The translations under genes and the position numbers were made by a program. From Lachnospiraceae bacterium (GTDB lineage: Bacteria > Bacillota_A > Clostridia > Lachnospirales > Lachnospiraceae), in the NCBI GenBank assembly GCA_017430765.1, contig JAFRMI010000060.1, positions 21,670-85,669 on the forward strand: a stretch of DNA of 64,000 nt. The letters run 5' to 3'. Positions 5,561 to 27,355 of this stretch are shown piece after piece; within the stretch, counting starts at the first letter, position 1; every line of letters starts with the position of its first letter. The notes beneath the pieces were generated by a model. It made no database searches. It was not told the DNA's origin and saw nothing but the letters and a program-made list of their open reading frames with translations.

Positions 5561-5591
5561 AGATCTCCGTTTCGTCAAATGACCCGCTCAT

Positions 5592-5623
5592 AAAAAGCAG
5601 ACATTCGCAATCCGCTTCGCACC
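5592..5623 (-). repeat. Dispersed 32-bp intergenic repeat, copy A
   Basis: This 32-bp block shares 27 of 32 positions with the block at 15521-15552 and 24 of 32 with the one at 43561-43592. The conserved core on the minus strand is GCGAAGCGGATTGCG. It sits between two genes of the same operon. Its function is unknown; it could be a small mobile repeat or a structured spacer in the mRNA. Confidence 0.6.
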
Positions 5624-5630
5624 CCTCTCA

Positions 5631-5655
5631 TCATCCGCTGCCGCAAAAGGCGGCC
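5631..5655 (-). repeat. Short GC-rich hairpin repeat shared with the gap upstream of the response regulator gene
   Basis: Nineteen bases at 5631-5649 (TCATCCGCTGCCGCAAAAG) recur exactly at 49352-49370. Here they continue into GCGGCC, giving a GCCGC-AAAAG-GCGGC type hairpin. A related GCGGC-AAAA-GCCGC hairpin lies upstream of glmM at 58082-58095. The role is unknown. Confidence 0.5.
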
Positions 5656-5657
5656 TC

Positions 5658-7100: not shown

Positions 7101-7970
7101 TTACAGTCCCTCGGCAATCTCCATCAGGTATTGGCCGTAGGCAGTCTTAAGCAGCGGCTGCGCAAGCGTAATCAGCTGGTCGCGGTCTATGAAGCACCGC
7201 TTGTAAGCGATCTCCTCGATGCAGGAGATATAGAGGCCCTGCCGTTTCTGGAACGCCGCCACGAAATCGGCGGCGTCAAGCAGCATGTCGTGGCTTCCCG
7301 TATCGAGCCAGGCGAATCCGCGTCCGAGCGTCTCCACGTAGAGATCCCCTCTCTTCAGGTACTCGTTGTTGACGGTCGTGATCTCCAGTTCCCCTCTGGC
7401 GGACGGCTTCACGTTCTTGGCGATCTCGATGACATCGTTGTCATAAAAATACAGCCCGGGGACAGCATACTTCGACTTCGGATGCTCCGGCTTCTCCTCG
7501 ATGGATACGGCCCGGCCCTGTTCGTCGAACTCGACGACGCCGTACTGCCTCGGATCCTTTACGTAGTACCCGAAGATCGTGGCGCCCTTCTCCCTCTTCG
7601 CCGCTTCCGCAAGCACGCGGGAGAAACTCTGCCCGTAGAAGATGTTGTCGCCCAGAACCAGCGCGACCCGGTCACTGCCGACGAATTCCTTGCCGATAAT
7701 AAACGCTTCCGCAAGCCCGTTCGGATGTTCCTGTACTTTATAGGAGAATTCCATCCCCAGCTGGGAGCCGTCCCCGAACAGTTCCTCGAATACGGGGAGG
7801 TCGCGCGGCGTGGAGATAATCAGGATCTCCCGGATTCCGGCGAGCATCAGCGTGGACAGCGGGTAATAGATCATCGGTTTGTCGTACACCGGCATGATCT
7901 GCTTGCTGACAGCCTTCGTCAGCGGATAAAGCCTTGTGCCGGAACCACCGGCAAGAATAATCCCTTTCAT
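7101..7970 (-). CDS. rfbA: Glucose-1-phosphate thymidylyltransferase
   Basis: A 289-residue nucleotidyltransferase with the diagnostic N terminus [28 protein letters not shown], the uridyl/thymidyl-binding [10 protein letters not shown] segment, EKPEHPKS and [11 protein letters not shown]. It makes dTDP-glucose from glucose-1-phosphate and dTTP, the first committed step to dTDP-rhamnose. The length is typical. GGAGG stands seven bases before the ATG. It lies between rfbB and rfbC in the same direction. Confidence 0.97.
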
Positions 7971-12318: not shown

Positions 12319-12345
12319 AAAAGGAGGACGATTACTCGTCCTCCT
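12319..12345 (-). terminator. Hairpin terminator overlapping the stop codon of the carrier-protein gene
   Basis: AGGAGGACGA and TCGTCCTCCT form a perfect 10-bp stem around a four-base loop, followed on the minus strand by a short T run. The stem begins inside the last codons of the carrier protein and its stop codon overlaps the loop. It ends the leftward operon and may also face the convergent YfhO transcript, although the plus side lacks a good T tract. Confidence 0.6.
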
Positions 12346-12565
12346 CCTTAAGAGCCATGATCAGTTCGTAGATTGCCTCCGCCGAGTTGAAATTCTCCGG
12401 CAGAAGGTCATCCGCATTGATCTCCACATCGTAGGCGTCATTGACCTCCCCGACAATTGAGATGATATCGAACGAATCCAGGATCTGGTCGTCGATCAGC
12501 GTTGTCGCCGTCTCAAAGTCCACATCCGGTCTCGTCTCCTCCAGAATCTCCATTAATCTTTCCAT
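12332..12565 (-). CDS. Acyl carrier protein (DltC-like)
   Basis: A 77-residue acidic carrier protein. The phosphopantetheine attachment serine is S31 in ILDSFDIISIV, a DSF variant of the usual DSL, followed by the expected helices (EINADDLLPENFNSAEAIYELI). Size and charge fit DltC and other stand-alone carriers. It is the last gene of the leftward operon, 29 bases after the MBOAT gene. GGAGGAGG lies 12 bases before the ATG, a slightly long spacing. In the Dlt system such a carrier hands an activated acyl group to an MBOAT; here no DltA is adjacent, but two CapK-like adenylating enzymes are in the same operon. Confidence 0.9.
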   Translation of the reverse strand: MERLMEILEETRPDVDFETATTLIDDQILDSFDIISIVGEVNDAYDVEINADDLLPENFNSAEAIYELIMALKEEDE

Positions 12566-12594
12566 AAAGCTTATCAGCCTCCTCCATTATTCCG

Positions 12595-14202
12595 TTAAAT
12601 TCCCTGATAAATAAATGACGCCGCGTTGTACCCCGGTCCATAGCTCCCGAAAATCAGGATCATGAAAATTGCCAGAAGATAGAACGCATAGCGGAACACG
12701 ATTCCCTGCTTTGCCGCAATCTCGCGCACAACGATGCCCCGCTCATTGAGGATATCGATCACGAGAAGAACCACGATGGTATACATAGTAAAACGGAAAT
12801 CTTTTTCCGTCAATCCCAGCTTGTAAAAAGTACCGTTCAGAAATACCTGCGGATTGAACGATGTAAATGTGGCCTTAAACAGCCGGAACGACACTTTGAG
12901 CCCGTCCGTACAGTCAAAATACCGGCCCATGGTGATGAGGAACAGTGTCCGCGCCATCTGGAAGAGTCTCCACCCGAGGGATTCTCCGTCAATGTGCAAA
13001 AAGGCCCGCGTATCCGCCGAGACCTTCTCAAGCAGTGAATCGAGCGAGGTCAGGGTCGCGTGGAACACGCCGAACGCGACATACCGCCAGGCCGCCCCGT
13101 GCCAGATACCCACGATCACGAACACGATAAACGAGGCGATCGTCGACGGAAGGATCTTGCCGTAATAGGATCCGATCCTCTTCTTCGCTTTCTTTGTAAA
13201 GCGGGAAAACGGCTTCGACAGGGCGATCGGGTAAAAGAGATAGTCCTTCATCCATCTGCCCAGTGACATATGCCATCTCTGCCAGAATTCCGAGACGGTC
13301 CTGGACATATACGGCGCTTTGAAATTCTCCGTAAGTGTGATGCCGAAAAGCCCGGATATGCCGAGGACAATATCGATTCCGCCGGAAAAGTCCGCGTACA
13401 TCTGGAACCCGTAGAACAGAAGCCCGACAAAAACCGTAAAGCCCTTATAGTTGTTGACCTCAAAATTGGAGATGACCTCTGTGGCGATAATGGCTGCATT
13501 TTCCGCAATCACCATCTTTTTAAAATATCCCCAGAGCATGCGCAGGACGGACGTCCGAAACGTCATCTCATCAAATTCGTGCTCCCCGAAAAGCTGGCCC
13601 GCCAGCTCCTGGTGCTTGGAGATCGGCCCCTGTATGATCTGCGGAAAGTAAGAGGCGAACAGCGCGTACTGGAAGAGATTTCGGTCCGCCTTCTCACGTC
13701 CCTTGCTGACGTCCATCAGATAGCCGGTCATCTGGAAGGTGTAGAAGGAGATTCCCAGCGGCAAAATGAGGCCAAGCGGCGCAAACTGCCGGCCGGACCC
13801 CGTAAGACGGAGAAGGCCGTTGATGTTGAGAAGCGTGAAATTGGCGTATTTTAAAACGGCGAGAATTCCGAAGTTAAAGACCATCGTGAGCACGAAGACG
13901 CGCTTTCTTCGTTTCGCGTATGTGTCCTTGATTCTGTTTTTCTCCTCTTTTGAAAGCGGTTCGCCGCCGCCTTTAAGTGCGGTCTTCTGCTCTTCTGTCA
14001 AACGCTCGAGATACAGCGCCGCATAATAGGTCGTCAGAATTGTGACCGTAATAAACAGGCCGGCTTTTACCCCGCCCGCCGCGTAATAAAATACGATGCT
14101 CATGATCAGGAGCACGACCCACTGAAAGCGTTTCGGAATCGCATAAAAGAGGATCAGCCCGCATACAATCAGTATTAGAAATGGAACAGAAAACAAAGTC
14201 AT
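12595..14202 (-). CDS. MBOAT-family membrane O-acyltransferase (DltB/AlgI-like)
   Basis: A 535-residue polytopic membrane protein. The MBOAT core is clear: FWQRWHMSLGRWMKDYLFYP, then GIWHGAAWRYVAFGVFHA with the conserved WHG histidine near residue 367. About 11 hydrophobic spans are visible, from FLILIVCGLILFYAIP to the C-terminal YAFYLLAIFMILIFGSYG. The length is closer to AlgI than to a minimal DltB. The ATG at 14202 is chosen because the next residues begin the first membrane span; an in-frame GTG 16 codons upstream would add an unusual polar leader. It sits between an SGNH-like gene and a carrier-protein gene, the usual company of export-side acylation systems. Confidence 0.93.
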   Translation of the reverse strand: MTLFSVPFLILIVCGLILFYAIPKRFQWVVLLIMSIVFYYAAGGVKAGLFITVTILTTYYAALYLERLTEEQKTALKGGGEPLSKEEKNRIKDTYAKRRKRVFVLTMVFNFGILAVLKYANFTLLNINGLLRLTGSGRQFAPLGLILPLGISFYTFQMTGYLMDVSKGREKADRNLFQYALFASYFPQIIQGPISKHQELAGQLFGEHEFDEMTFRTSVLRMLWGYFKKMVIAENAAIIATEVISNFEVNNYKGFTVFVGLLFYGFQMYADFSGGIDIVLGISGLFGITLTENFKAPYMSRTVSEFWQRWHMSLGRWMKDYLFYPIALSKPFSRFTKKAKKRIGSYYGKILPSTIASFIVFVIVGIWHGAAWRYVAFGVFHATLTSLDSLLEKVSADTRAFLHIDGESLGWRLFQMARTLFLITMGRYFDCTDGLKVSFRLFKATFTSFNPQVFLNGTFYKLGLTEKDFRFTMYTIVVLLVIDILNERGIVVREIAAKQGIVFRYAFYLLAIFMILIFGSYGPGYNAASFIYQGI

Positions 14203-14276
14203 AGAAAAACCCCATTCTGCCGTCAAAGCGGCCTGAAGCAGCGGCCGCACACTATCTTACAGAGATCTCATCGCCG

Positions 14277-15470
14277 TCAGGAAGCCTTCCTGCTGGCCTT
14301 TTTTATCGTCTTTTTCCATTTTTTTACGGCGCGGTGCCATTTCCTGAGATCGGCGTTCCATCTCTCATAGGCCGGATCCTCCCTGTGGTCGGGCAGGTTG
14401 TAAGCCGATGCGAGATACGGCGCCATCCAGGCCGTGATCTTCTTCGCTCCGTACACATTGAAATGGCCGTTATTCCAGAAATCGAGCTTCACGTCGAGAT
14501 CATACTCCTCGAAATGATCCTCACAGTCGAGGAAGGAAAACCCGCGCTCCCTGACCCGCCGCTCGATGTAGTTGACCCGCTCGAGCGCATTCGGATAGAG
14601 AGGTGAGAGGGCGTAAGGATAGTACAGGAAAAGCACGTCCATATCCAGTTTTTCCGCCTCGTCCAGCAGTTCATCGAGTTTCGCGTCCCAGAATTCCCCG
14701 ATCGGCATCTCCTCGTCCGTCTGCACAGGCAGATTGATCTCGTCACCCCAGCCAAGGAAATTGTATCCTCTGTACAGAAACGGATACTGCCCGTTCCAGT
14801 TTTCCAGGTTCAGCGGCTCCTTGTGGTATTTTGCAATGTCGAAAATATAATTCAGAATACGGATATTGTGCGGAAGATTCTGCCAGATGTAGCGCACCCG
14901 GTCCGGGGAATACTTGTAGCCGTCCGTGTTGAACCGGATATTGGCGTTGCCCTCGTCCTCCCTTGACAGAAGATACATGGAGTTTTCCACTATAAAAGGA
15001 CGCACATCCAGAACCAGAAGCCGGGGCTTCTGCGTCTTTAGCATCTCATGAATCGCGAACAGCATTCCTTCCACCTGCATCTCGTTGGTGCAGAGGTTGT
15101 AGGAGGTGAATCCATATTCTTCAAATGCGTCCATCGGCATAAACGAGGACATGGTTCCGCTCGTCCCGATAAAGACGACGTCGAGAGAATCCTTCTCCTC
15201 GGCGTAAAAGCCGCTGACATTGTTCCGAGAATGCGCCAGTTCCGGCCTTTTCGCGTAGGAGACATGCACAAAAAGCCATCCGAAGAGAACAGCAAACAAA
15301 GTGAGCCTGACAAAGAAGGAGACGCGGTCATTCACCCGTTTCTTCGGATCAGCCGTTTCCGGGAGATCGGCTGCCGGAGCCTTTGTTCCCGCGGTTTTCC
15401 GCTTTGTCTCCGGCACTGTCCCCGCCGCGGTTTCAATTTTCTTATCTTTGTTTATGGCAGATGATTCCAT
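14277..15470 (-). CDS. Membrane-anchored SGNH/AlgJ-DltD-like protein partner of the MBOAT
   Basis: A 397-residue protein with a charged N-terminal tail (1-48), one membrane span (51-71) and an extracytoplasmic domain. DVVFIGTSGTMSSF places a candidate nucleophile at S104 in a GxS block I, and LDFWNNGHFNVYGAKK near the end supplies D330 and H336 in the DxxH-type block. This arrangement is typical of SGNH-hydrolase-like partners of MBOAT proteins (DltD, AlgJ/AlgX, PatB). The GAGG before the ATG is well placed. The likely role is transferring an acyl group to the polymer outside the cell. The acyl group and acceptor cannot be read from the sequence. Confidence 0.8.
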   Translation of the reverse strand: MESSAINKDKKIETAAGTVPETKRKTAGTKAPAADLPETADPKKRVNDRVSFFVRLTLFAVLFGWLFVHVSYAKRPELAHSRNNVSGFYAEEKDSLDVVFIGTSGTMSSFMPMDAFEEYGFTSYNLCTNEMQVEGMLFAIHEMLKTQKPRLLVLDVRPFIVENSMYLLSREDEGNANIRFNTDGYKYSPDRVRYIWQNLPHNIRILNYIFDIAKYHKEPLNLENWNGQYPFLYRGYNFLGWGDEINLPVQTDEEMPIGEFWDAKLDELLDEAEKLDMDVLFLYYPYALSPLYPNALERVNYIERRVRERGFSFLDCEDHFEEYDLDVKLDFWNNGHFNVYGAKKITAWMAPYLASAYNLPDHREDPAYERWNADLRKWHRAVKKWKKTIKKASRKAS

Positions 15471-15520
15471 AGTTCCTCTCTTGCTGCAAAACCTGCCCTC
15501 TCATTCCGGGGCATATCCTC

Positions 15521-15552
15521 GTAAAGCGGACATCCGCAATCCGCTTCGCTCC
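15521..15552 (-). repeat. Dispersed 32-bp intergenic repeat, copy B
   Basis: Matches copy A (5592-5623) at 27 of 32 positions and copy C (43561-43592) at 27 of 32. This copy contains the perfect small inverted repeat GCGGA-CA-TCCGC. It fills much of the 101-base gap between two genes of one operon. Confidence 0.6.
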
Positions 15553-15571
15553 TTACAGACGCATGATCCGC

Positions 15572-16537
15572 TCACTCATTGACAAGCGTATCGTCCTCGA
15601 ACCCAATCCGCTCCTCCTCCACGACGAGCGGCCGGTCCAGAACCCTCTGGTTAATCGACAGGATGTATTCCCCCATGAGGCCGATAAAGAAAAGCTGCAC
15701 GCCTCCCAGAATAAATACGCCGATCACAAGCGGCGCGATTCCGGCGCGGAACCAGTCCCACCTGAGAAGCTTCAGGATAAAGTACACAATTGCCACGAGA
15801 AAGCTCATGCCGCCTATAAAGAAGCCCGCAAACGTCGCAAACCGCAGCATCACCTTCGAGTAGGACGTGATGCCCACCATCGCCACGTCGTAAAGGCTGT
15901 AGAAATTATTCTTGCTTTTTCCCGCGCGCCGTTTCGGCCTCTCATAAAACACGGTCTTATAATCATACCCAAGTTCCGCGATCATCCCGCGGAGGTACGG
16001 CACGGGGTCATGAATTCCGCGGACAACATCGACAAATGCCTTGTCATACAGTCCGAACCCGGTAAAGTTCTCAATGTGCCCGATATCCGTGATCTTCCGG
16101 AGAAGCTTGTAATACCGTCTGCGGAGGAACGCCATGATCACGCCTTCATCCGTCTTCTCCTTGATTCCGATCACGATCCGGTTTCCCGCTTCCCACTCCG
16201 CGACAAGCGTCGGAATCATCTCCGGCGGATCCTGGAAATCCGCGTTGAGGCGGACGACGCAGTCGCCGTAAGCCTGTTTAAGACCGTGCACCGGCGAGCG
16301 GAGCTGGCCGAAATTCCTGGCGTTGAAAATTGCCTTCACGTGCGAGTGCTCCGCGCACAGCTTTCTTAACAGAACGCGCGTATTGTCTTTGGAGTGGTTA
16401 TCAATAAAGATTATTTCGTAGTCATACTTCGGAAGCTGCTCCTCGAAAATACGGCACAGCGTCTCCGTCATCGGAACTACGTTATCCTGTTCATTATAAG
16501 TCGGTATGACTACCGATATCAGCTTTCGTTTTTCCAT
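15572..16537 (-). CDS. GtrB/DPM1-like polyprenyl-phosphate glycosyltransferase
   Basis: A 321-residue GT2 enzyme: SVVIPTYNEQDNV near the N terminus, IIFIDNHSKDNT, ARNFGQLRSPVHGLKQAYGD, then VRLNADFQDPPEMI with the DxQD metal-binding signature of the DPM1/GtrB group. Two strong membrane spans follow (FATFAGFFIGGMSFLVAIVYFILKLL and PLVIGVFILGGVQLFFIGLMGEY). Such enzymes load a sugar onto undecaprenyl phosphate on the cytoplasmic side; after flipping, a GT-C enzyme uses it outside. The YfhO protein nearby is a candidate user. The ATG at 16537 has GGAG six bases upstream; an ATG four codons earlier lacks one. Confidence 0.93.
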   Translation of the reverse strand: MEKRKLISVVIPTYNEQDNVVPMTETLCRIFEEQLPKYDYEIIFIDNHSKDNTRVLLRKLCAEHSHVKAIFNARNFGQLRSPVHGLKQAYGDCVVRLNADFQDPPEMIPTLVAEWEAGNRIVIGIKEKTDEGVIMAFLRRRYYKLLRKITDIGHIENFTGFGLYDKAFVDVVRGIHDPVPYLRGMIAELGYDYKTVFYERPKRRAGKSKNNFYSLYDVAMVGITSYSKVMLRFATFAGFFIGGMSFLVAIVYFILKLLRWDWFRAGIAPLVIGVFILGGVQLFFIGLMGEYILSINQRVLDRPLVVEEERIGFEDDTLVNE

Positions 16538-16587
16538 TCCTGTCTCCATGTTGCCGGCGGTCCGGCGCAGAACATCTCCTGCGCGGC

Positions 16588-18432
16588 TTACACCATGGCC
16601 TCCCCTTCCGTCAGGGGAATCTCCAAATTCGCGGCGAGTTCTTCCCTTGAAAGAAACGGCGCCATATCTTCAAGCGGCGATGAGACCATCGTCCCGTCCG
16701 GGAGCCTTCTTGAGGAAGGCTTGGGCTCCGTCTTCTGGAGCGGCGAAACGCGGACCTCAATCAGTGCCGGCAGCGGCAGGGCCATTGCCTCCCGCATACG
16801 CGCTTCGATGGTCGGGTTATCCGGGATGCACCCGTAATGCAGTCCGAAGCAGGCTGCCAGTTTTTCCGGTTCCGGAAAATCCAGATCCCCGCTCTCCGGT
16901 CCCACGCCGATCAGCGGCTTCCCGAAATACGCATTCTGTGTCTGCCGGATCGAATGATAGCCCCCGTTGCAGATCAGGAAGACCCGCACGGGAATCCGGT
17001 TCGTCACGATGGTCTGCAGTTCCTGCAGATTCATCATGAGGCTCCCCTCCCCTGTCACGGCGGTGATCTCCTTTCCCGTTCCCCGGGCAAGTCCGATCGC
17101 GGCCGGCAGGCCGTATCCCATCGACGCGGTTGCGGTGTTGGAGTAGAACCGCGTCCCCTCTTTGAGCCGGAGCATCTGGATTCCCGCGACGCGCGACGTC
17201 CCGCAGCTCGCGATCACATCCGCCCCCTGCGGAAGCTGCTTCGAGAGTTCATCGTAGAACCGGTAGATATTGGACAGCCCGTCCGGCTGCGGGGCGCACT
17301 CCGCCTCCGTGAGTGTCGGAAAGCGGAACAGGCGCTCTCTTGCGCGGGCCGTCCATCCCGCTGCTTTTGCGCAGTACGGATGCTCTTTCGAGGCACCGCG
17401 GGTTTTAAGTGTCGAAATCAGGCGGTCCATCAGTTCCTTCGCGTCACAGATGACGGGGAGATCACAGCGGACGTTGGGCTTTTTCAGCTCATTTTCATCG
17501 AGTTCGTTGAGGATTGTATACGCCTCGCGCCCCCACTCCGGATAATTGAATCCGGTCTGGAGAAAGCTCTGCCTGCTGCCGATGGAGAGGAAGAGGTCGC
17601 TTCCCGCCATCGTAAGATTGCCGGAGCGGTTTCCGGTCATGCCGGTTCTGCCTGCGTAGTACGGGTGCGTTTCGGGCAGAAGATCGATGCTGGACATTCC
17701 GGTCAGCACCGGGATTCCGAGAAGGTCCGAAAGATCGCGGAACGACGCGATGCCCCCGGAAGCCCGGACGCCGAATCCGCCGAAGAGGACCGGCCTCTCT
17801 GCCGCGAGCAGGCGGTCCGCAATCTCCTCGACGAGGCCTGCGGACGGAGCGGGAGGATCTTTATACCCCTCTGCTGCCGGCTCGAAAGAACGAAGCGCCG
17901 CGGGATCGATCTCCGCTGCCTGCACATCGAGAGGAATATCGAGCCAGACAGGCCCCCTCCGTCCGTGCATCATGAGATACAGCGCCTTCTCCAGCGCATA
18001 GCGGACGTCCTCCTTCTTCTCCGTCATAACCGCGTATTTTGTCATCGGAGATGCGGAGAGCGTCACGTCGAACTCCTGGATCCCGCTCGTGCGGAGCGGA
18101 AGCCCCGTTCCCCGCACCGTCGTCGCGAAACGGGCCTGTCCGGACAGCACAAGCATGGGAATCGACTCCATATACGCGCACAGAACACCTGTCAGCGCGT
18201 TGGTGGCACCGGGACCCGTCGTCACGAGCACGCATGCGGGGCGGTTGTCCACCCGCGCATAAGCCTCCGCCGCCATGGCACAGGCCTGCTCATTGTGATG
18301 AAACGTGCAGCGAAGTTTCTCCGAGTGCCCGAACGAATCGTCGAGGTGCATCGCCCCGCCGCCCGTCACAAGGAACACATCCTGTATTCCCGTCTCTATA
18401 CATCTTTCCGCAATATAGTCCGATACTTTCAT
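16588..18432 (-). CDS. Acetolactate-synthase-like TPP enzyme, candidate branched-sugar (YerE-type) enzyme
   Basis: A 614-residue thiamine-diphosphate enzyme with three domains. The N-terminal catalytic glutamate is E48 in FHHNEQA, the central FAD-type domain spans roughly 190-350, and the C-terminal cofactor site near residue 460 reads TGEGSLMMNLQEL...ICN, with GEG where acetolactate synthases have GDG. It lies in a CDP-sugar operon with no ilv genes near, which argues against amino-acid synthesis. In Yersinia the related YerE adds a two-carbon unit from pyruvate to a CDP-3,6-dideoxy-4-keto sugar to make yersiniose. That role is inferred here from the rfbF/G/H neighbours. A generic TPP decarboligase is the alternative. 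Confidence 0.85.
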   Translation of the reverse strand: MKVSDYIAERCIETGIQDVFLVTGGGAMHLDDSFGHSEKLRCTFHHNEQACAMAAEAYARVDNRPACVLVTTGPGATNALTGVLCAYMESIPMLVLSGQARFATTVRGTGLPLRTSGIQEFDVTLSASPMTKYAVMTEKKEDVRYALEKALYLMMHGRRGPVWLDIPLDVQAAEIDPAALRSFEPAAEGYKDPPAPSAGLVEEIADRLLAAERPVLFGGFGVRASGGIASFRDLSDLLGIPVLTGMSSIDLLPETHPYYAGRTGMTGNRSGNLTMAGSDLFLSIGSRQSFLQTGFNYPEWGREAYTILNELDENELKKPNVRCDLPVICDAKELMDRLISTLKTRGASKEHPYCAKAAGWTARARERLFRFPTLTEAECAPQPDGLSNIYRFYDELSKQLPQGADVIASCGTSRVAGIQMLRLKEGTRFYSNTATASMGYGLPAAIGLARGTGKEITAVTGEGSLMMNLQELQTIVTNRIPVRVFLICNGGYHSIRQTQNAYFGKPLIGVGPESGDLDFPEPEKLAACFGLHYGCIPDNPTIEARMREAMALPLPALIEVRVSPLQKTEPKPSSRRLPDGTMVSSPLEDMAPFLSREELAANLEIPLTEGEAMV

Positions 18433-18569
18433 AATCGAATTCCCTGTGTTTTCGTAACTGTTCAGTACTCCTCATTGCCGGGGATGCCCCGTGTCCCCCG
18501 CTGCGGGCGGTCAAAGGCACCCTTTCACATCCTGAGACGGACGGCAGAGGAATACCGCATGTACCTTCT

Positions 18570-19901
18570 TTACCGGAGATACTTCTCACACCTCTGCTCA
18601 CAGACCATAGTCTTCCCCGACTGCTCGATCGGAAGGCCGTCCACATATTCCACGCGGATCACTGCATCTTCCCCGAGATACTTCCGGTAGGCCGCAATGA
18701 CCTCCTCTCCGGAAAGATGCGCTCCCATCTCGGCATTCAGCTTCAGAAGATATTCTTTCTCCCCTGTCTGGATGCATTTTGCCTGACGAAGCCGCCCCTC
18801 GAAATTCAGCAGATTATTCATGAATACATGCGTCGACAGCGGCTCCCCTTTCGTGTTGTAGATGAGCGCGCCGCGGCGTCCGTAGATCTCCGTAAAGATC
18901 TGCCGCACACGCCCCTCCTCATCGGGAAGCGTCCGCAGAATTCCGGTATCCCCCGTGTCGTAGCGGATCATGGGGAACGCGCGGTTGTAATAATCCGTGA
19001 CGACAATTCTCCCAAGCTCCCCTTCTTCCGCCGGTTCGTCGGCATCCAGCTTCAGGATTTCAACATAAAAGTTATAGAGGTCAATCGTGTACACATCTTC
19101 CCCGGGAAGGCTCACGGCAATAAACCCGTTCTCATTATTGCCGTAGGAGAGAACCGGCGTAATGCCGAAGAGCTCCTTCGCTTTCTTCCTTGTGGAGGCA
19201 GGAAGCGCCTCCCCCATTGTGAAGATCATCTCGACCGCCCATCCCGTAACATCCAGGCTGCTCCGCTCCGCGTAATCGGTAAGCGCCGTGATGGCGCTTG
19301 AGTACGCGACCAGCACCTGGATCCGCTCCTCAAAGATCCGGTCAAAGATCGCACGGATGTTTCCGTCCCCCATATTGGAGATGTCAATCATCAGCAGGTT
19401 GTTGGTGAATGAGCGCAGGCCCGAGATCGTGTTCTTCCCCTCGATCCAGGCGCGGAACTCCCCCCTCTTCATTCCGAGCCGGAACCCGTTGAGCTCCATC
19501 ACGGACATAAAGTTCATTCCGACGCGATTGTACTTTTCGTCATCCGCGAGCACCGTAAAAGGCGTCCCCGTTGACCCGCTCGTCGAAAAGCGGTGAAGTT
19601 TATCCCGCTTCTCCCGGTAGAGATCGCTCAGAATTCCTTCGTAGTTCCCGATAAAATCCCGCTTCAGCAGAACCGGAAAATCTGACAGCGACTGACAGGT
19701 TCCAAGTTTCCTGTAAAACGGACACGTGAGCGAGGCGTGCCGCAGAAGCGCAGCAAGCCTTCTTTCCCGGTAAGCAGGCGTCACGCCGTTCACAATCTCC
19801 CGCTTATTGGCATTTAAGATCTTCTGTTTTTTTCCGCCTTTAAGATCATCGAGCGACTGCCAGGCCGCTCTGCGGATCCACTCTCCAGGTTGAATGGCCA
19901 T
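18570..19901 (-). CDS. CapK/PaaK-like adenylate-forming enzyme (second copy)
   Basis: A 443-residue protein of the phenylacetate-CoA-ligase-like CapK family. The ANL-type phosphate-binding loop is FSTSGSTGTPF, and the C-terminal adenylation motif is MIRYDTGDTGI. N-terminal helices with RHASLTCPFYRKL are typical of CapK. No membrane span or signal is seen. It starts directly after the flippase stop (TAAATG). Its substrate is unknown. Context suggests it activates a carboxylic acid for transfer to a sugar amine or to the carrier protein at 12332. A paralogue lies on the other side of the flippase. Confidence 0.88.
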   Translation of the reverse strand: MAIQPGEWIRRAAWQSLDDLKGGKKQKILNANKREIVNGVTPAYRERRLAALLRHASLTCPFYRKLGTCQSLSDFPVLLKRDFIGNYEGILSDLYREKRDKLHRFSTSGSTGTPFTVLADDEKYNRVGMNFMSVMELNGFRLGMKRGEFRAWIEGKNTISGLRSFTNNLLMIDISNMGDGNIRAIFDRIFEERIQVLVAYSSAITALTDYAERSSLDVTGWAVEMIFTMGEALPASTRKKAKELFGITPVLSYGNNENGFIAVSLPGEDVYTIDLYNFYVEILKLDADEPAEEGELGRIVVTDYYNRAFPMIRYDTGDTGILRTLPDEEGRVRQIFTEIYGRRGALIYNTKGEPLSTHVFMNNLLNFEGRLRQAKCIQTGEKEYLLKLNAEMGAHLSGEEVIAAYRKYLGEDAVIRVEYVDGLPIEQSGKTMVCEQRCEKYLR

Positions 19902-21101
19902 TTATGTTCCCCTTCCCGCTTTGATAAAACCAAGTGTCAGAACCAGCAGAATCCGGATGGTATTCGCGATCAGAACTCCTGCCGAAAAACCGGGAAGACC
20001 GCCTCCCGGTGTCATCCGCGTAATCAGCAGCAGAAGGATCACCAGATGCAGAAGCTGCAGGGCAAGCTGCCACTTCGCGCCCGTAAATGTCAGAACCACA
20101 ATAAACAGGTACGCGGACAGCATCGCCAGAATCTGTGTGAGCGTCACCACCGGAATGAGGGACGCGGTTTCGCTGACAAGCTGCGGGTAAACCAGCCGGA
20201 TGAACACCGGCGTCACGATCATGCAGCCCGCGAAAAATACGGCCGCTGCCAGGACCCCCGCCGCAGCGAACACAAGAAACCGCCTGCGCGTCACCTTCTC
20301 CTCGTCCTTCGTGAGATAGGATATGACAATCGTATTCACGGGGGCAATGAAGAGAACCAGCGTCTTCCCGATCAGAGACACCACATAATAAACGGCGACA
20401 GCCTCTTCGCCGAGCGCTCCCTTCAAGAAAAGGCGGTCCATATTGAGGGTCAGATTCGTGACAAAATAGGACAGGACGAGCAGTCCGCCACGTCTCATCA
20501 CCATCGGGAAGTACGGCGTCCGGACAGTGACATTCCGGAAAATGCAGCCGGCAGCTGCGACGTAGCACAGTGCCGCCGCCTCGCCTGTAAGGAAGATCAG
20601 CTGCCAGATCCCGGTGGCTCTCCCGATCAGGTACCCCAGCGCATATCCGGCTCCGCAGATCGTATAATAGAAAAAATAGCGCCGATAATCAAGTGACAGT
20701 CTGTATTCCACATCCCCGTAGTACCGGAAATCGGTCAGGAGAATGAGCAGGGCAAGCAGCAGGACCGCACCTCCGCCGCCCAGAGAGTCCCTCGCGTAAA
20801 TGATCGAGCAGAGAATACCTATAAGGCTCATGAGGAGAACTGCCGCAAAGTAATCCCCGTTGTTAACGGCGTAATCCCGCCGCATGACAAGCCGACTGTT
20901 GTTGAGAGCCTGCCCGATGGAAGGTCCGAGAATATTCACGAGCGCCATGATATAGAGAAGACCGCCGTATGCGGCGGTTCCCATAGACGACGCCGCCCGC
21001 GGATAAACGAAAAGCTGGAGCACACCGTTCAGAACGAGTGCCCCTGCAATCGTATAGACCGTATTCGCCGCAATCGCTTTTTTACGCCTTACTTCCGCCA
21101 T
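19902..21101 (-). CDS. Wzx-like polysaccharide flippase (MOP superfamily)
   Basis: A 399-residue membrane protein with about 12 hydrophobic spans, from AIAANTVYTIAGALVLNGVLQLFVYP to the C-terminal LIANTIRILLVLTLGFI. The first span and the AAYGGLLYIMALVNILG loop are typical of oligosaccharide flippases; an arginine-rich short loop (YLTKDEEKVTRRRF) separates the two halves. It has fewer residues than many Wzx proteins. It probably flips a lipid-linked sugar or repeat unit. It overlaps the upstream CapK-like gene by 13 bases and abuts the downstream one. Confidence 0.85.
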   Translation of the reverse strand: MAEVRRKKAIAANTVYTIAGALVLNGVLQLFVYPRAASSMGTAAYGGLLYIMALVNILGPSIGQALNNSRLVMRRDYAVNNGDYFAAVLLMSLIGILCSIIYARDSLGGGGAVLLLALLILLTDFRYYGDVEYRLSLDYRRYFFYYTICGAGYALGYLIGRATGIWQLIFLTGEAAALCYVAAAGCIFRNVTVRTPYFPMVMRRGGLLVLSYFVTNLTLNMDRLFLKGALGEEAVAVYYVVSLIGKTLVLFIAPVNTIVISYLTKDEEKVTRRRFLVFAAAGVLAAAVFFAGCMIVTPVFIRLVYPQLVSETASLIPVVTLTQILAMLSAYLFIVVLTFTGAKWQLALQLLHLVILLLLITRMTPGGGLPGFSAGVLIANTIRILLVLTLGFIKAGRGT

Positions 21102-22399
21102 AGGTTCACAATGTATTTCCGTTTCCCGGACGCAAGCACCGGGATCTCGTCCACGTAGGTTACGCGAATCAACGCATCCTCACCCAGGGCGGGACGGATG
21201 CGCCCCAGCATATTTTCCACATCCATCACCCCACGGTCCCCGTTGAGGCGCAGTTCGTACTCCTTTGCTCCGGTCTGCAGGAACTGGTACTGCCGCACGC
21301 CCTCCACGTCCCAGAGATTATTGGTCACGACATACGGTGTCACCGCAGCCCCGGACGTATCGTAGAGCATATCGCTCCTTCTTCCGTAGAGGTTCTCAAG
21401 CGTGAGACGGTACCTGTCCCCCCGGACCGTCTTTTTTGCGGAGGCGGAATCGCCGTTGTCGTAACGGATGACGGGAAACGCATAATTCGTCAGATCCGTA
21501 ATTACAATTCTGCCGACTGTTCCGTCCGGAGCCGGCTCATCCGACTCCATGCGGAGGATCTCGTAGTGATAGCTCTCTGAGTTAATGTAATAGCTCTCAT
21601 CATGGCGGTTCTCAATCCCCATGATGCCGTTTTCCTCGTTGGAATAATAGGACCGCACGGGGCAGCCGAACTGACGGGACAGCTGTTCCCGTACCGGAGA
21701 GGGCATCGACTCAGAGATCGGAAGGATCGCCTGCACACGAAAGCCGGAGAGATCCATGCCGGTTCTGTCAATATACCGGCTGATCTCCCCAAGCGCGGAG
21801 GCGTAGCCCGTTATTACCCGGACCCCTTTTTTGCGGATGACATCCAGCATACCGCGGATGGCTTCATCCGACAGGGATGAACTCTCCATCATGATGCTGT
21901 TTTCCATAAACAGCTGCAGACGGCTCTTCTTCACGTTGTCGACCCACACCCGGATAAACGCAATCCTGTCACCAATCCGGTACCCTCCCAGAGCGCTCAG
22001 GAATATGCTGTCCGCCGTATTGCAGACCGCCTTATGCGCGTCCTGGATCATCGTAAACGGGGTTCCGGTTGAGCCACTCGTCGTCATAAGCCGCATGCCG
22101 GGCGTGCCGTCCGGATACGCGGAGGAGCGAAACTCCTCATAATGTGCGCGCCACGTGTCCTTATTAACGATGGGCCATGTCTCAAGCGGGGCTTCCGGAT
22201 CACAGTTTCTGTAGAAAACCGTCGTCTCCGCCGCGTGGCGGAGAAGCGCCCGGATCCGGTCCTCCTCATCCTTTACAGACGTCCCGTGTTTCCATGCATA
22301 TAAATCCTTCTCACAGCGCGTTCTGACCGCCCCTCCACGGATCCGGTCAAGGGCAAAGTAACCCGACCAGCGCGCCTTCTCGCCGATTTCCTTTATCAT
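21089..22399 (-). CDS. CapK/PaaK-like adenylate-forming enzyme (first copy)
   Basis: A 436-residue CapK-family enzyme with the loop MTTSGSTGTPFTMI and the C-terminal motif VIRYDNGDSASA, where the DTGD of the paralogue becomes DNGD. It is divergent from the copy at 18570 but colinear along its length, so the two are likely paralogues with different substrates rather than a recent duplication. It overlaps rfbH by four bases (ATGA). Role inferred as acyl or aminoacyl activation in the polysaccharide pathway. Confidence 0.88.
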   Translation of the reverse strand: MIKEIGEKARWSGYFALDRIRGGAVRTRCEKDLYAWKHGTSVKDEEDRIRALLRHAAETTVFYRNCDPEAPLETWPIVNKDTWRAHYEEFRSSAYPDGTPGMRLMTTSGSTGTPFTMIQDAHKAVCNTADSIFLSALGGYRIGDRIAFIRVWVDNVKKSRLQLFMENSIMMESSSLSDEAIRGMLDVIRKKGVRVITGYASALGEISRYIDRTGMDLSGFRVQAILPISESMPSPVREQLSRQFGCPVRSYYSNEENGIMGIENRHDESYYINSESYHYEILRMESDEPAPDGTVGRIVITDLTNYAFPVIRYDNGDSASAKKTVRGDRYRLTLENLYGRRSDMLYDTSGAAVTPYVVTNNLWDVEGVRQYQFLQTGAKEYELRLNGDRGVMDVENMLGRIRPALGEDALIRVTYVDEIPVLASGKRKYIVNLWRK

Positions 22400-23736
22400 A
22401 GTGCGGCCGCCTCTTTCAGCATCTTTGCCATGTAAGAGAGCTTTTCTTCTGTCATGCCGGGATACACGCCGATCCAGAAGGAATCCTTCATAATGCGGTC
22501 GGTATTGTCAAGTGTCCCGACGACGCGGTATTTGTCACCCAGAGCCGGATCATCCGACAGACACGGGTGCTTTGTGAGATTGCCCGCAAAAAGCATCCTC
22601 GTCTGTACGCCGTGGTTTTCGAGATGGGCGACCACATCGCTTCTGTTCACGCCATCCCGCACCGTGATAAAGAATCCGAACCAGCAGGGATCCGAGTTCG
22701 GGTTGGCCTCGGGAAGGATATAGGCGTCTTCCGTCCCCGCAAGCGCCTCCTTCAGATACGTGAAATTCTCTCTTCTCCGTTTTGCGAACGTCGGAAACTT
22801 TTCAAGCTGCGCCACACCGACTGCGGCCTGCATATCCGTCGCCTTCAGATTATATCCGAAATGGCTGTATACATATTTGTGGTCATAGCCAAGAGGCAGT
22901 TCCCCGTACCGGCGGTCAAAGCGGTGTCCGCAGAAATTGTCCTGTCCCGGAGGACACACGCAGTCCCTTCCCCAGTCGCGGAGAGAGCGGACGATCCGGT
23001 GAAGAAGCGGATGATCCGTGTACACGGCGCCTCCCTCACCCATGGTCATGTGATGGGGCGGATAAAAGCTGGAGGTTCCGATATCGCCGAACGTCCCTGT
23101 CAGCTTTGTCTCTCCGTTCAGCGTGTACAAGCTGCCGAGCGCGTCGCAGTTGTCCTCCACAAGCCACAGACCGTGTCTGTCGCAGAAAGCCTTTACGGTC
23201 TCCAGATCAAACGGATTGCCGAGTGTGTGCGCCATCATCACCGCTTTCGTGCGCGGTGAAAGAGCCTCCTCCAGCATGCTCACATCCACGTCAGCTCCCG
23301 GGAGCTTCACGTCCAGAAAGACAGGAACAGCCCCGTACTGTACGATCGGGGAGACCGTCGTCGGAAAGCCGGCGGCCACCGTAATGACCTCGTCTCCCGG
23401 AAGGACGCGCCGCTCCTTAAGAAGCGGGGAGGTAAGGGCCATGAATGCCAGCAGGTTCGCGCTGGATCCGGAATTCACCAGCGACACGTAACGGATTCCC
23501 AGGTATTCCGCGAACTTCTCCTCAAACTCCCGTGAAAAGCGTCCGGCTGTCAGCCAGAATTCCAGCGCTGAATCCACAAGGTTCATCATCTCCGCACTGT
23601 CATAGACGCGCGAAGCGTAGGGAATCCTGTCCCCCTCGCGGAAAGGAGCCGTCCGGTTGTGATATGTCTCGCAATACTCCCGGACAGCGTCCAGAATGTA
23701 AGTTCTCGCCTCTTCTTTCGTTTTCCCCTCAAACAT
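22396..23736 (-). CDS. rfbH: CDP-4-dehydro-6-deoxyglucose 3-dehydratase (E1)
   Basis: A 446-residue PLP-type enzyme of the E1/RfbH group. The usual Schiff-base lysine is replaced by histidine in FYPPHHMTMGEGG (228-229), the hallmark of 3-deoxygenation enzymes that use PMP. The [2Fe-2S] cysteines are visible as C197, C259, C261 and C269, with the same 2- and 8-residue spacings as Yersinia E1. It removes the C3 hydroxyl of CDP-4-keto-6-deoxyglucose. The ATG at 23736 with GGGGAG nine bases upstream is chosen over an in-frame GTG seven codons earlier; it overlaps rfbG by eight bases. No E3 reductase gene is in the window. Confidence 0.95.
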   Translation of the reverse strand: MFEGKTKEEARTYILDAVREYCETYHNRTAPFREGDRIPYASRVYDSAEMMNLVDSALEFWLTAGRFSREFEEKFAEYLGIRYVSLVNSGSSANLLAFMALTSPLLKERRVLPGDEVITVAAGFPTTVSPIVQYGAVPVFLDVKLPGADVDVSMLEEALSPRTKAVMMAHTLGNPFDLETVKAFCDRHGLWLVEDNCDALGSLYTLNGETKLTGTFGDIGTSSFYPPHHMTMGEGGAVYTDHPLLHRIVRSLRDWGRDCVCPPGQDNFCGHRFDRRYGELPLGYDHKYVYSHFGYNLKATDMQAAVGVAQLEKFPTFAKRRRENFTYLKEALAGTEDAYILPEANPNSDPCWFGFFITVRDGVNRSDVVAHLENHGVQTRMLFAGNLTKHPCLSDDPALGDKYRVVGTLDNTDRIMKDSFWIGVYPGMTEEKLSYMAKMLKEAAAL

Positions 23737-24778
23737 GAAAATACTCCCCGATTTCACTTCTGGTGAACTGTCTCATATCCTTCCCGTCCGCATATGCCTT
23801 CGACCACGCCGCCGTCCGCTTCACAGCCTCGCGGATATCCCAGACCGGCTTCCAGCCTACCCTCGTCCGGATCTTCGTGCTGTCGAGCATGAGCAGCTTC
23901 GCCTCATGCGGCCCTCCGTCAGGACGGACGGTCTTTGTCACGCCCCCGCCCCACGCTTCTATGAATAGATCGGCGATCTCACCCGCCGTGATCGCATCTG
24001 ACGGGCCAGGTCCGACATTATAGGCACCTGCCAAAGTCCGGTCCTCAAACTGCCGCTTCGCGAGAAGCAGGTATGCGGCAAGGGGTTCGAATACATGCTG
24101 GAACGGCCGCACCGACGCCGGGTTCCGCAGCACGATCGGTTCTCCCCGGACAGCCGCGCGCACGCAGTCCGGCACGATCCGGTCCGGAGCGAAATCGCCC
24201 CCGCCGATCACGTTGCCGGCACGGGCTGTCGACACAGCTGCCCCGTGATCTCTGAAAAATGAATTCCAGTAGCTGTGCGTCACAAGATCCGAGCAGGACT
24301 TGCTGTTTGAATACGGATCATAGCCGTCCAGCGGATCTTCCTCAAGGTATCCCCGGTCCTTCTCGATATTGAGATAGACCTTATCCGTCGTGACGTTGAC
24401 AATACTGTCCGCGCAGTCCGCTTTCCGGAGCGCCTCAAGAAGGTTCACGGTTCCCATGATATTCGTCTCGAACGTCTCGCGGGGAATCCGGTAAGACTCG
24501 CGGACGATCGGCTGTGCCGCGAGGTGGAATACAACCGCAGGCCGCACGTCAGACACCGCTTTGTCAAGGGCGTCGTAATCCCGCACGTCTCCGCGGATAT
24601 CCCGGATCTCCTCTCCGAGGCGCAGCAGGTCAAACAGGGAAGGATCTGTCGGAGGATCCAGAGAAAAGCCGGTCACATCCGCTCCGGCCATTAACAGAAT
24701 TTCGGCAAGACAGGCGCCTTTAAAGCCCGTATGTCCGGTTATCAGAACCCGTTTGCCGCGGTACCAGTCCATCATCAT
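23729..24778 (-). CDS. rfbG: CDP-glucose 4,6-dehydratase
   Basis: A 349-residue SDR-family enzyme. The N terminus DWYRGKRVLITGHTGFKGACL is characteristic of CDP-glucose dehydratases, with the GHTGFKG nucleotide-binding loop. HLAAQPIVRESYR, the YSNSKSCSDLVT YxxxK site and ARAGNVIGGGDFAPDRIVPD follow. It makes CDP-4-keto-6-deoxyglucose from CDP-glucose. It starts immediately after the rfbF stop (TAAATG), and AAGGA precedes its first of three consecutive ATGs. Confidence 0.96.
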   Translation of the reverse strand: MMMDWYRGKRVLITGHTGFKGACLAEILLMAGADVTGFSLDPPTDPSLFDLLRLGEEIRDIRGDVRDYDALDKAVSDVRPAVVFHLAAQPIVRESYRIPRETFETNIMGTVNLLEALRKADCADSIVNVTTDKVYLNIEKDRGYLEEDPLDGYDPYSNSKSCSDLVTHSYWNSFFRDHGAAVSTARAGNVIGGGDFAPDRIVPDCVRAAVRGEPIVLRNPASVRPFQHVFEPLAAYLLLAKRQFEDRTLAGAYNVGPGPSDAITAGEIADLFIEAWGGGVTKTVRPDGGPHEAKLLMLDSTKIRTRVGWKPVWDIREAVKRTAAWSKAYADGKDMRQFTRSEIGEYFHV

Positions 24779-25561
24779 TTATTCCTTCCACACTTTCCAC
24801 GGGGCGTCTCCCTTCTTCCAGAGCGCCTCCAGCATTTCCTTTTCACGCAGCGTATCCATGCACTGCCAGAACCCGTCGTGGCGGTATGCGCGAAGTTTTC
24901 CGTCCGCTGCGATCTGCTCGATCGGTCCCTTCTCAAATATGGTGGTGTCGTCCTCAAGATAGGAGAGAACTCCCGGCTCCGCCACCATGAACCCGGCGTT
25001 GATCCAGCCGGCATCCTCCGCCCTCTTCTCCCGGAAGCTCTGTACGACGCCGTCCTCCGTCATGTCCAGATTGCCGTAGCGGCTGTTCGGGTGAATGCAG
25101 CTCATGGTGAGCAGCCCGCCGGAGGCCCTGTGAAACGCGTAGAGGCGGTCAATCGGGATGTCGGACACACCGTCTCCGTATGTCAGGAAAAACGGTTCGT
25201 CATCAAGATAGTGGGCGATCCTTCGAATTCTTCCGCCCGTCATCGTATCGAGACCGGTGTCCACAAGAGAGACCTTCCAAAGCTCGGAGTGATCCCTGTG
25301 CACGATCATCTCATTCTGACCGTTTGTAAAATCGAAGGTGATATCACTGTTATGCAGAAAATAATTGGCAAAATATTCCTTGATCACATGCTGCATATAG
25401 CCGCAGCAGATAATAAAATCATTGAAGCCGTAATGATAATACTGCTTCATAATATGCCAGAGAATCGGTTTTCCTCCGATCTCCACCATCGGTTTCGGGC
25501 GAAGATGGCTCTCCTCGCTGATCCGGGTTCCGTATCCTCCCGCCAGAATGACCGTCTTCAT
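24779..25561 (-). CDS. rfbF: Glucose-1-phosphate cytidylyltransferase
   Basis: A 260-residue nucleotidyltransferase. LAGGYGTRISEES at the N terminus, RPKPMVEIGGKPILWHIMK, FIICCGY and YGDGVSDI are diagnostic of RfbF. It makes CDP-glucose from glucose-1-phosphate and CTP, the entry step to CDP-dideoxyhexoses. It begins two bases after the dacF stop, and its ribosome-binding site (AAAGGAG) is inside the last codons of dacF, so the polysaccharide genes are probably co-transcribed with dacF. Confidence 0.96.
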   Translation of the reverse strand: MKTVILAGGYGTRISEESHLRPKPMVEIGGKPILWHIMKQYYHYGFNDFIICCGYMQHVIKEYFANYFLHNSDITFDFTNGQNEMIVHRDHSELWKVSLVDTGLDTMTGGRIRRIAHYLDDEPFFLTYGDGVSDIPIDRLYAFHRASGGLLTMSCIHPNSRYGNLDMTEDGVVQSFREKRAEDAGWINAGFMVAEPGVLSYLEDDTTIFEKGPIEQIAADGKLRAYRHDGFWQCMDTLREKEMLEALWKKGDAPWKVWKE

Positions 25562-27277: not shown

Positions 27278-27355
27278 AACCTTCTCCTTTTTGATGCTGT
27301 TTTAAAAGTACAGCACATTTTATAGACTGTTCGGACAGACCGACGCCATCCGGGT

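What the first reader, a model, noticed from the sequence alone, without database searches (positions are those of the whole stretch)
12332..25561. CDP-dideoxysugar genes joined to a TPP enzyme, two CapK enzymes and an ACP/MBOAT/SGNH module in one Clostridial operon
The sequence shows rfbF, rfbG, rfbH, CapK-like, flippase, CapK-like, acetolactate-synthase-like, GtrB-like, SGNH-like, MBOAT and carrier-protein genes in one close-packed leftward series. RfbF/G/H chemistry leads to a CDP-3,6-dideoxy-4-keto sugar, and a YerE-type TPP enzyme can add a two-carbon branch as in yersiniose. The rest looks like an acylation and export module. The inferred product is a branched, acylated deoxysugar decoration, known mainly from Gram-negative O antigens.
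Basis: partly seen in the sequence, partly recalled or inferred. Interest (0 to 1): 0.72.

Follow-up and report, generated by a model that had tools for sequence, protein, structure and literature searches.

The report
Gut-bacterial branched-sugar wall decoration cluster
This stretch of DNA, from a relative of Lachnospiraceae gut bacteria, looks like a gene cluster that builds a rare carbon-branched deoxysugar, loads it on a membrane lipid, flips it outside and hangs it on the cell wall; the sugar type is best known from Gram-negative O antigens, yet relatives of the key enzyme are common in this family.

Summary
In detail: eleven leftward genes of the named families at 12332-25561. RfbF, RfbG and RfbH pass curated cut-offs. 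The TPP enzyme's best solved relative is JanthE, a YerE-like enzyme (371 bits; acetolactate synthase 190); a clade with relatives' IlvB is rejected. Added here: (1) the recurring unit is CapK-flippase-CapK-TPP-GT2, often with RfbFGH beside it. SGNH-MBOAT-ACP is a Dlt-like module absent from 20 of 20 CapK-bearing loci, though its near relatives were found only in genomes with this unit (4 of 26). (2) The GtrB-like GT2 tracks the TPP enzyme: 79 of its 85 genomes have it. With a WzxE-like flippase and a YfhO GT-C this suggests a three-component transmembrane glycosylation system fed by a CDP-branched sugar. (3) A candidate branch reductase lies in the window, 12 kb away. (4) The CapK pair marks one TPP subclade, 24 of 26 of whose rows read GEG instead of GDG. 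Open: what CapK does, the acyl group, the acceptor (perhaps the neighbouring rhamnan), RfbH's electron donor. No product has been seen. New variant of a known kind.

The parts
24779..25561 (-). rfbF, glucose-1-phosphate cytidylyltransferase
   Evidence: TIGR02623 383.9 bits, cut-off 300.25
23729..24778 (-). rfbG, CDP-glucose 4,6-dehydratase
   Evidence: TIGR02622 418 bits, cut-off 278.45
22396..23757 (-). rfbH, CDP-4-keto-6-deoxyglucose 3-dehydrase (E1 type)
   Evidence: PRK15407 700 bits, cut-off 423; 3bcx/3bb8 516/512 bits with HHxTMGEGG kept; C-x-C-x7-C present
21089..22399 (-). CapK2, PaaK-like adenylate-forming enzyme
   Evidence: AMP-binding, below cut-off; TSGSTG, YDxGD, GRR and SGK motifs; orthologues 54-71% identical, against 35% between CapK1 and CapK2
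19902..21101 (-). Wzx/MOP-type flippase
   Evidence: no Pfam hit; model mean pLDDT 86.6; Foldseek WzxE 9g9n TM 0.78, also MATE and MurJ
18570..19901 (-). CapK1, PaaK-like adenylate-forming enzyme
   Evidence: orthologues in 9 of 299 genomes, 8 of them with CapK1 beside the TPP gene
16588..18432 (-). YerE/JanthE-like TPP carboligase, GEG in place of GDG
   Evidence: JanthE 8rph 371 bits, 5ahk 197, E. coli AHAS I 190; trees; motif
15572..16549 (-). GtrB/ArnC-like GT2, predicted undecaprenyl-phosphate glycosyltransferase
   Evidence: GtrB sll0501 162.5 bits, ArnC 112.6; 79 of its 85 genomes have the TPP enzyme
14277..15470 (-). SGNH protein of the Dlt-like acylation module
   Evidence: model and fold search; Ser/Asp/His invariant in 33 of 33
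12595..14250 (-). MBOAT O-acyltransferase, DltB-like
   Evidence: PF03062 68.5 bits; DltB TIGR04091 146.5 bits against cut-off 375; DltB structures 96 bits
12332..12565 (-). acyl carrier protein with DSFD site
   Evidence: PF00550 22.8 bits, cut-off 20.8; sequence
9346..12309 (+). YfhO-type GT-C glycosyltransferase, convergent with the operon
   Evidence: PF09586 176.7 bits; in 7 of 20 CapK-bearing loci
37884..38786 (-). SDR protein, candidate for reducing the branch ketone
   Evidence: 303 bits to the SDR protein found near TPP and GT2 in other loci; YGIGK; 61% identical gene between uvrA and hemN in L221 and L226, and beside mreB and lepA in L227
8067..9149 (-). rmlB of the neighbouring rhamnose locus (possible acceptor polymer)
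   Evidence: TIGR01181 481 bits, cut-off 365
7101..7970 (-). rmlA of the neighbouring rhamnose locus
   Evidence: TIGR01207 490 bits, cut-off 361
4217..6455 (-). Wzt (with Wzt_C) and Wzm, ABC exporter of the neighbouring polysaccharide locus
   Evidence: PF14524 132 bits, PF00005 84 bits, PF01061 55 bits

Best explanation
The core operon makes and delivers a 4-C-branched 3,6-dideoxyhexose. RfbF and RfbG make CDP-4-keto-6-deoxyglucose and RfbH removes the 3-OH (families shown; reactions inferred from them). The YerE/JanthE-like TPP enzyme decarboxylates a 2-keto acid and adds the acyl anion to C4 (inferred from family). An SDR protein encoded elsewhere in the window reduces the branch ketone (inferred). 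The GtrB-like GT2 moves the sugar from CDP to undecaprenyl phosphate, the WzxE-like flippase turns it out, and a YfhO-type GT-C hangs it on a wall polymer, perhaps the rhamnan of the neighbouring Rml-Wzm-Wzt locus (inferred from families, linkage and position). The two CapK enzymes activate a carboxylic acid that modifies this sugar or its carrier (inferred; weakest step of the core). SGNH-MBOAT-ACP is a Dlt-like O-acylation module that goes with this system in part of the group and works outside the membrane on the same surface; its usual ligase is not in the window.
For: RfbFGH over curated cut-offs, RfbH with the E1 histidine and cysteine pattern. TPP: JanthE 371 bits against AHAS 190; 12 separate IlvB over cut-off in 10 of 11 relatives; grouping with JanthE (SH-aLRT 87; 83/73); clade with IlvB rejected, p-AU 5.5e-05; JanthE Lys567 kept in 102 of 103 TPP rows, the window among them, Met in 11 of 12 IlvB. 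YerE-like enzymes branch CDP-3,6-dideoxy-4-keto-glucose (PMC12247030, passages). GT2 and TPP: 79 of 85 genomes with this GT2 have TPP, 20 of 214 without; GT2 on the same strand within 6 kb downstream in 59 of 80 loci; distances correlate at r 0.76 over 65 loci. Flippase: WzxE. YfhO with GtrB-type partners is a known system (PMC8035078, passages). L001 repeats the order cdaA-ybbR-HPr-dac-block-YfhO-RmlB-RmlA-Wzm-Wzt without RfbFGH; L008 has cdaA-ybbR-HPr-RfbFGH-block-YfhO and RmlB; L023 RfbFGH-block-YfhO-RmlB-RmlA-Wzm.
Against: No product is known. Seven of eight JanthE positions looked at differ in the window and the Mg-binding motif is GEG. Grouping with JanthE has only moderate support, and 5ahk falls outside. 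No RfbI/E3-type gene in the operon; in 9 relatives no protein with N-terminal Fer2 fused to FAD_binding_6 was seen, one with C-terminal Fer2 was. In 5 of 11 CapK-type genomes RfbH lies on another contig than the TPP gene. I know of no GT2 of this kind that uses a CDP sugar. 15 of 80 TPP loci, some of them short, show no such GT2. YfhO is in only 7 of 20 CapK-bearing loci; 8 others have a weakly GT87-like protein instead. The SDR homologue was not found in 2 of 12 relatives.
Confidence: 0.6

Rival explanations
1. The TPP enzyme is an acetolactate synthase (anabolic or catabolic) that merely sits among sugar genes.
For: Its best NCBIfam hit is TIGR00118, the biosynthetic acetolactate synthase.
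Against: 279.7 bits against a cut-off of 538; a catabolic-type structure, 9zgl, scores 114 bits against 371 for JanthE; 12 IlvB over cut-off in 10 of 11 relatives; clade with IlvB rejected. Catabolic enzymes could not be put in the tree: none at E 1e-180 in 81 genomes of the phylum.
Confidence: 0.05
2. One integrated pathway, as first read: the acyl group set by ACP, MBOAT and SGNH goes onto the branched sugar itself, with a CapK enzyme loading the ACP.
For: All in one direction with small gaps. In G092 and G005 it is on the TPP contig, about 6 and 8 kb from GT2. All four belong to the window's own TPP subclade (rows L003, L005, L006, L141). No DltA-like ligase lies in the 64 kb, so a CapK could stand in.
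Against: In 20 of 20 CapK-bearing loci CapK lies without MBOAT, SGNH or ACP nearby. In 10 of 10 ACP-bearing modules seen outside the window, the four near relatives included, a ligase of the usual AMP-forming kind is close, so CapK is not needed as loader there. The window's genome is not held, so its ligase may lie elsewhere.
Confidence: 0.3
3. The CDP-branched sugar is used by an ordinary cytoplasmic glycosyltransferase inside a repeat unit, and the GT2 carries another sugar (UDP-glucose or UDP-GlcNAc).
For: Known GtrB/ArnC relatives use UDP-sugars (recalled); the three-component systems in Table 1 of PMC8035078 (passages) add Glc, Gal, GlcNAc or unknown sugars; some loci carry other GTs nearby.
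Against: The GT2 linked to TPP is a distinct group (324 to 623 bits; 124 and 143 in two loci that lack it), present in 79 of 99 TPP genomes and 6 of 200 others.
Confidence: 0.25

Closest known systems
Yersiniose A pathway (RfbF/G/H-type enzymes plus YerE), Yersinia pseudotuberculosis and other Gram-negatives
   Same: CDP-4-keto-3,6-dideoxyglucose enzymes and a YerE-like TPP enzyme together
   Different: relatives are Gram-positive (Lachnospiraceae and kin); no E3 reductase gene beside RfbH; CapK pair; polyprenyl-phosphate-type GT2 and flippase in the operon; distant TPP sequence
JanthE, Janthinobacterium sp. HH01 (PDB 8rph-8rpj)
   Same: nearest solved relative of the TPP enzyme by sequence; also an unusual cofactor motif (CDG there, GEG here); Lys567 kept
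   Different: seven of eight positions discussed for JanthE differ; GEG changes the Asp, CDG the first Gly
Multi-component transmembrane glycosylation systems (CsbB-GtcA-YfhO, GacI-GacK-GacL)
   Same: GtrB-type GT, Wzx- or GtrA-type flippase, GT-C (YfhO) and, in the Gac system, a rhamnan acceptor
   Different: the donor is predicted to be a CDP-activated branched deoxysugar made by the same operon
Dlt D-alanylation operon
   Same: MBOAT, SGNH and small carrier protein; the near relatives also have an AMP-forming ligase
   Different: MBOAT scores 146 against the DltB cut-off 375; no DltA-like gene in the window; SGNH has no NCBIfam hit

Membership tests
CDP-3,6-dideoxyhexose pathway (RfbF, RfbG, RfbH) | three enzymes over curated family cut-offs | tested here: met
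CDP-3,6-dideoxyhexose pathway (RfbF, RfbG, RfbH) | E1-type RfbH with His at the PLP-lysine place and [2Fe-2S] cysteine pattern | tested here: met
   HHMTMGEGG, C204 and C266-x-C268-x7-C276 kept; that these are the defining residues is recalled
CDP-3,6-dideoxyhexose pathway (RfbF, RfbG, RfbH) | E3 (RfbI/AscD) reductase partner | tested here: not met
   none among the eleven genes; 9 relatives: 9 FAD_binding_6 hits in 7 genomes, none with N-terminal Fer2 fusion; one with C-terminal Fer2, the rest read as pyr and asr neighbours from their sequences (recalled names). The window's own genome could not be searched
YerE-like carboligases | groups with YerE-like enzymes apart from AHAS | tested here: met
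   with JanthE at moderate support, clade with IlvB rejected; 5ahk (PpYerE, identity recalled) placed outside
YerE-like carboligases | lies with genes for a deoxy-keto sugar | tested here: met
   in the window; RfbH in 43 of 80 loci (11 of 20 and 32 of 60) and in 11 of 11 CapK-type genomes asked, on the same contig as TPP in 6
YerE-like carboligases | transfers an acyl anion to a ketone | not testable with these tools
   needs an enzyme assay
Acetolactate synthase (TIGR00118, TIGR02418) | score over the curated cut-off | tested here: not met
   279.7 against 538 for TIGR00118; TIGR02418 not among the best 25 families listed
Three-component transmembrane glycosylation system | GtrB-type GT, flippase and GT-C together | tested here: met
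   YfhO is convergent, not in the operon
Three-component transmembrane glycosylation system | sugar carried on undecaprenyl phosphate | not testable with these tools
   needs biochemistry
Dlt operon | DltB over cut-off and DltA present | tested here: not met
   146 against 375; no ligase of that type in the window

The most novel reading that the evidence does not exclude
A Gram-positive transmembrane glycosylation system built around a CDP-activated, C-branched dideoxysugar: a GtrB-like transferase group dedicated to a CDP sugar, a CapK pair that acylates the sugar, and a GEG-type branching carboligase, decorating wall rhamnan in Lachnospiraceae of gut and rumen.
Probability: 0.35. Interest if true: 0.75.

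Novelty: new variant of a known kind. Interest (0 to 1): 0.56.

Why it matters
C-branched sugars are rare antigenic sugars, and YerE-like enzymes are sought as catalysts for tertiary alcohols. If the reading holds, a third of the genomes asked in this family (99 of 299 at E 1e-100; 5 of these score under 400 bits and may be other enzymes) carry a relative of this enzyme, so gut commensals would display a class of branched sugar best known from Gram-negative LPS, and a group of lipid-carrier glycosyltransferases would have a new kind of donor. It also makes the function of CapK-type ligases testable, since in this subclade they are tied to one sugar pathway.

Tried and rejected
Catabolic acetolactate synthases could not be placed in the tree: none at E 1e-180 in 81 genomes of the phylum (the control search found them in Bacillus subtilis and Lactococcus lactis). 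The idea that the branch stays unreduced because no reductase lies between TPP and GT2 was dropped when a homologue was found at 37884-38786 and in 10 of 12 relatives (not in G006 and G011). The idea that GEG marks all clostridial relatives was dropped: 5 of 77 other TPP rows have it against 24 of 26 CapK-type rows. Promoter and terminator scans gave 12 and 21 sites against 8.6 and 14.6 in shuffles and were not used. A literature search on CapK gave one unrelated listing. Branched sugars in polysaccharides of Eubacterium saburreum were looked for on recollection; the listings gave no support, and the one paper looked into (PMC8707391, passages) names xylulose only, so this is not claimed. Rows dropped before the tree: 138 loci gave an open frame of 480-760 aa; 11 repeats, one other and 8 identical rows were left out, giving 122 rows with the window and three PDB chains.


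Full report
What is there. The window (64 kb, GC 52-60%) has no whole genome held. Eleven genes run leftward from 25561 to 12332 with gaps of -29 to +137 bp. RfbF, RfbG and RfbH are certain by curated cut-offs. RfbH matches the solved CDP-4-keto-6-deoxyglucose 3-dehydrases 3bcx and 3bb8 at 516 and 512 bits, ahead of ColD-type chains at 181-184, and keeps the HHxTMGEGG stretch and a C-x-C-x7-C pattern. No E3-type reductase is among the eleven genes. In nine relatives there were nine FAD_binding_6 hits in seven genomes: eight I read from their sequences as pyr or asr neighbours (names recalled), one has NAD_binding_1 and a C-terminal Fer2 domain. The electron donor of RfbH is open.

The TPP enzyme. 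NCBIfam's nearest model is acetolactate synthase, at half its cut-off (279.7 of 538). Among solved proteins the best is 8rph, 371 bits, then 5ahk, 197, then E. coli AHAS I, 190. 8rph is JanthE (PMC12188165, passages); JanthE is described as a YerE-like enzyme with a CDG motif (PMC12247030, passages). That 5ahk is the YerE-like PpYerE is recalled. Eleven genomes holding relatives were searched for TIGR00118: 10 of 11 have an IlvB over the cut-off, 12 in all, besides the YerE-like gene. In a tree of 122 rows the window protein and 102 relatives join JanthE (SH-aLRT 87) apart from IlvB. In a careful tree of 35 chosen rows the same join has 83/73, and a clade of TPP rows with IlvB is rejected at p-AU 5.5e-05. 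JanthE and 5ahk are long branches, so the exact place is unsure. Of eight JanthE positions named in PMC12188165, the window keeps K567 and has I, T, L, F, Q, A and T at V121, Y268, P293, Y297, H494, S498 and F564 (numbering taken as chain index minus one).

Conservation. By tblastn 20 of 80 carry CapK and all 20 have the GT2; several are cut short by contig ends. Of the 10 with at least 7 kb upstream, 10 have CapK2 and the flippase, 9 RfbG and RfbH, 5 RfbF too. RfbH is present in 11 of 11 CapK-type genomes asked, but on the TPP contig in only 6; in L001 and G092 it is clearly elsewhere. In G092 CapK2 and the flippase face away from CapK1-TPP-GT2. MBOAT, SGNH and ACP are in 0 of the 20, 15 of which hold at least 8 kb downstream, and in 1 of the 60 others, L021. 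In the 60 loci without CapK, RfbH is in 32, GT2 in 45 and an SDR gene in 48. The CapK-type TPP rows form one clade of 26 (SH-aLRT 98), and 24 of these read GEG against 5 of 77 others. Across 299 genomes of the family, CapK1 orthologues occur in 9, 8 with CapK1 beside the TPP gene; the ninth, G249, has its TPP hit on another contig and the GT2 near CapK1.

Delivery. The GT2 is nearest to GtrB sll0501 (162 bits) and then ArnC. Across the same 299 genomes TPP is in 99 (E 1e-100; 5 of these under 400 bits) and this GT2 in 85 (E 1e-80); 79 have both, 6 the GT2 only, 20 the TPP only, 194 neither (Fisher p 2e-45, not corrected for kinship). TPP and GT2 distances correlate at r 0.76 over 65 loci, and at 0.56 after allowing for RfbH over 36 loci; shared descent alone can give this. 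The flippase model is of the MOP fold; WzxE has the best TM (0.78) and is second by E-value to a MATE transporter. YfhO proteins are GT-C enzymes in systems with GtrB-type and GtrA-type partners, and GacI-GacK-GacL does the like on a rhamnan with a Wzx-type flippase; the sugars in Table 1 of PMC8035078 (passages seen) are Gal, Glc, GlcNAc or unknown, and no word beginning with CDP occurs in its text. The neighbours of the block in the window, cdaA-ybbR-HPr-dac on one side and YfhO, RmlB, RmlA, Wzm and Wzt on the other, recur in L001, and in part in L008 (cdaA-ybbR-HPr; YfhO, RmlB) and L023 (YfhO, RmlB, RmlA, Wzm). Hence the reading of a three-component system with a branched CDP sugar, perhaps on rhamnan. 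That the GT2 takes a CDP sugar is inference from linkage.

The reductase. In 58 of 80 loci an SDR gene lies in the locus (10 of 20 with CapK, 48 of 60 without). The window has none between TPP and GT2 but has a homologue at 37884-38786, 303 bits, with a YxxxK motif. In L221 and L226 the same gene, 61% identical, lies between uvrA and hemN as in the window, and in L227 beside mreB and lepA. PMC4753412 (passages) says that the ketoreduction step of yersiniose was uncharacterised when it was written; nothing here tests that this SDR does it.

CapK and the acylation module. CapK1 and CapK2 are 35% identical, each with its own orthologues in 13 of 13 loci looked at, and keep the adenylation motifs. 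Their substrate is unknown. The MBOAT is DltB-like, the SGNH protein has the triad and, by weak fold matches, the fold; the ACP has DSFD. The broad SGNH family is in 127 of 299 genomes at E 1e-10, with TPP in 50 of them, against 49 of 172 without (p 0.03). Its near relatives tell more: among 26 CapK-type genomes, 4 (G003, G004, G005, G092) have an SGNH 42-50% identical, each with MBOAT, ACP and an AMP-forming ligase close by; at E 1e-90 the 299-genome draw has only G092. In G005 and G092 the module is on the TPP contig, about 8 and 6 kb from GT2. So the module is linked to part of this group, but outside the CapK-TPP block. In 18 neighbourhoods of more distant SGNH homologues (of 30 given as loci) 5 have an ACP, all 5 with a ligase; with L021 and the four above, 10 of 10 ACP-bearing modules seen outside the window have a ligase. 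The window has none in 64 kb. Either it lies elsewhere or a CapK serves.

Literature. Searches for YerE with yersiniose, JanthE, YerE-like enzymes, yersiniose, branched sugars in Gram-positive wall polymers and related names gave no listing that I recognised as a C-branched sugar or a YerE-like operon in Clostridia. [quoted passage not shown] 2024, which is not held, so clostridial members may already be listed there. Gram-positive antibiotics with C4-branched octoses are known, made with other enzymes (PMC4753412, passages).

Verdict. New variant of a known kind.

Noticed in passing
L031, L043, L047, L061, L067, L068, L072: TPP loci of other subclades carry a protein related to 4-hydroxy-2-oxovalerate aldolase (HMGL-like), and some a HAD hydrolase or an AroB-like sugar phosphate phospholyase (TIGR04425); these might supply longer keto acids as branch donors, as for ErwE (one representative of each was scanned).
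   Followed up: no
L043, L059: TPP enzymes of Treponema MAGs lie inside the clostridial clade, which suggests transfer between phyla or misbinned contigs.
   Followed up: no
L041, L063: Two MAGs named Paenibacillaceae have TPP enzymes almost identical to that of Lacrimispora defluvii (L044), probably a naming or binning error.
   Followed up: no
L222, L173: MBOAT-SGNH pairs without a detected ACP lie about 2 kb from RfbF (G092, another contig) and next to RfbH (G014), so acylation genes and RfbFGH meet more than once.
   Followed up: partly
P0285: A 593-aa protein is listed with CapK domains and a TPP_enzyme_N domain, perhaps a natural fusion of CapK1 with the start of the TPP enzyme or a frame artefact.
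   Followed up: no
window 25564-29557: The operon begins 3 bp after a D,D-carboxypeptidase gene in the series cdaA-ybbR-HPr-dac; L001 has HPr, dac and then CapK2 at this place, so RfbFGH looks inserted or lost here.
   Followed up: partly
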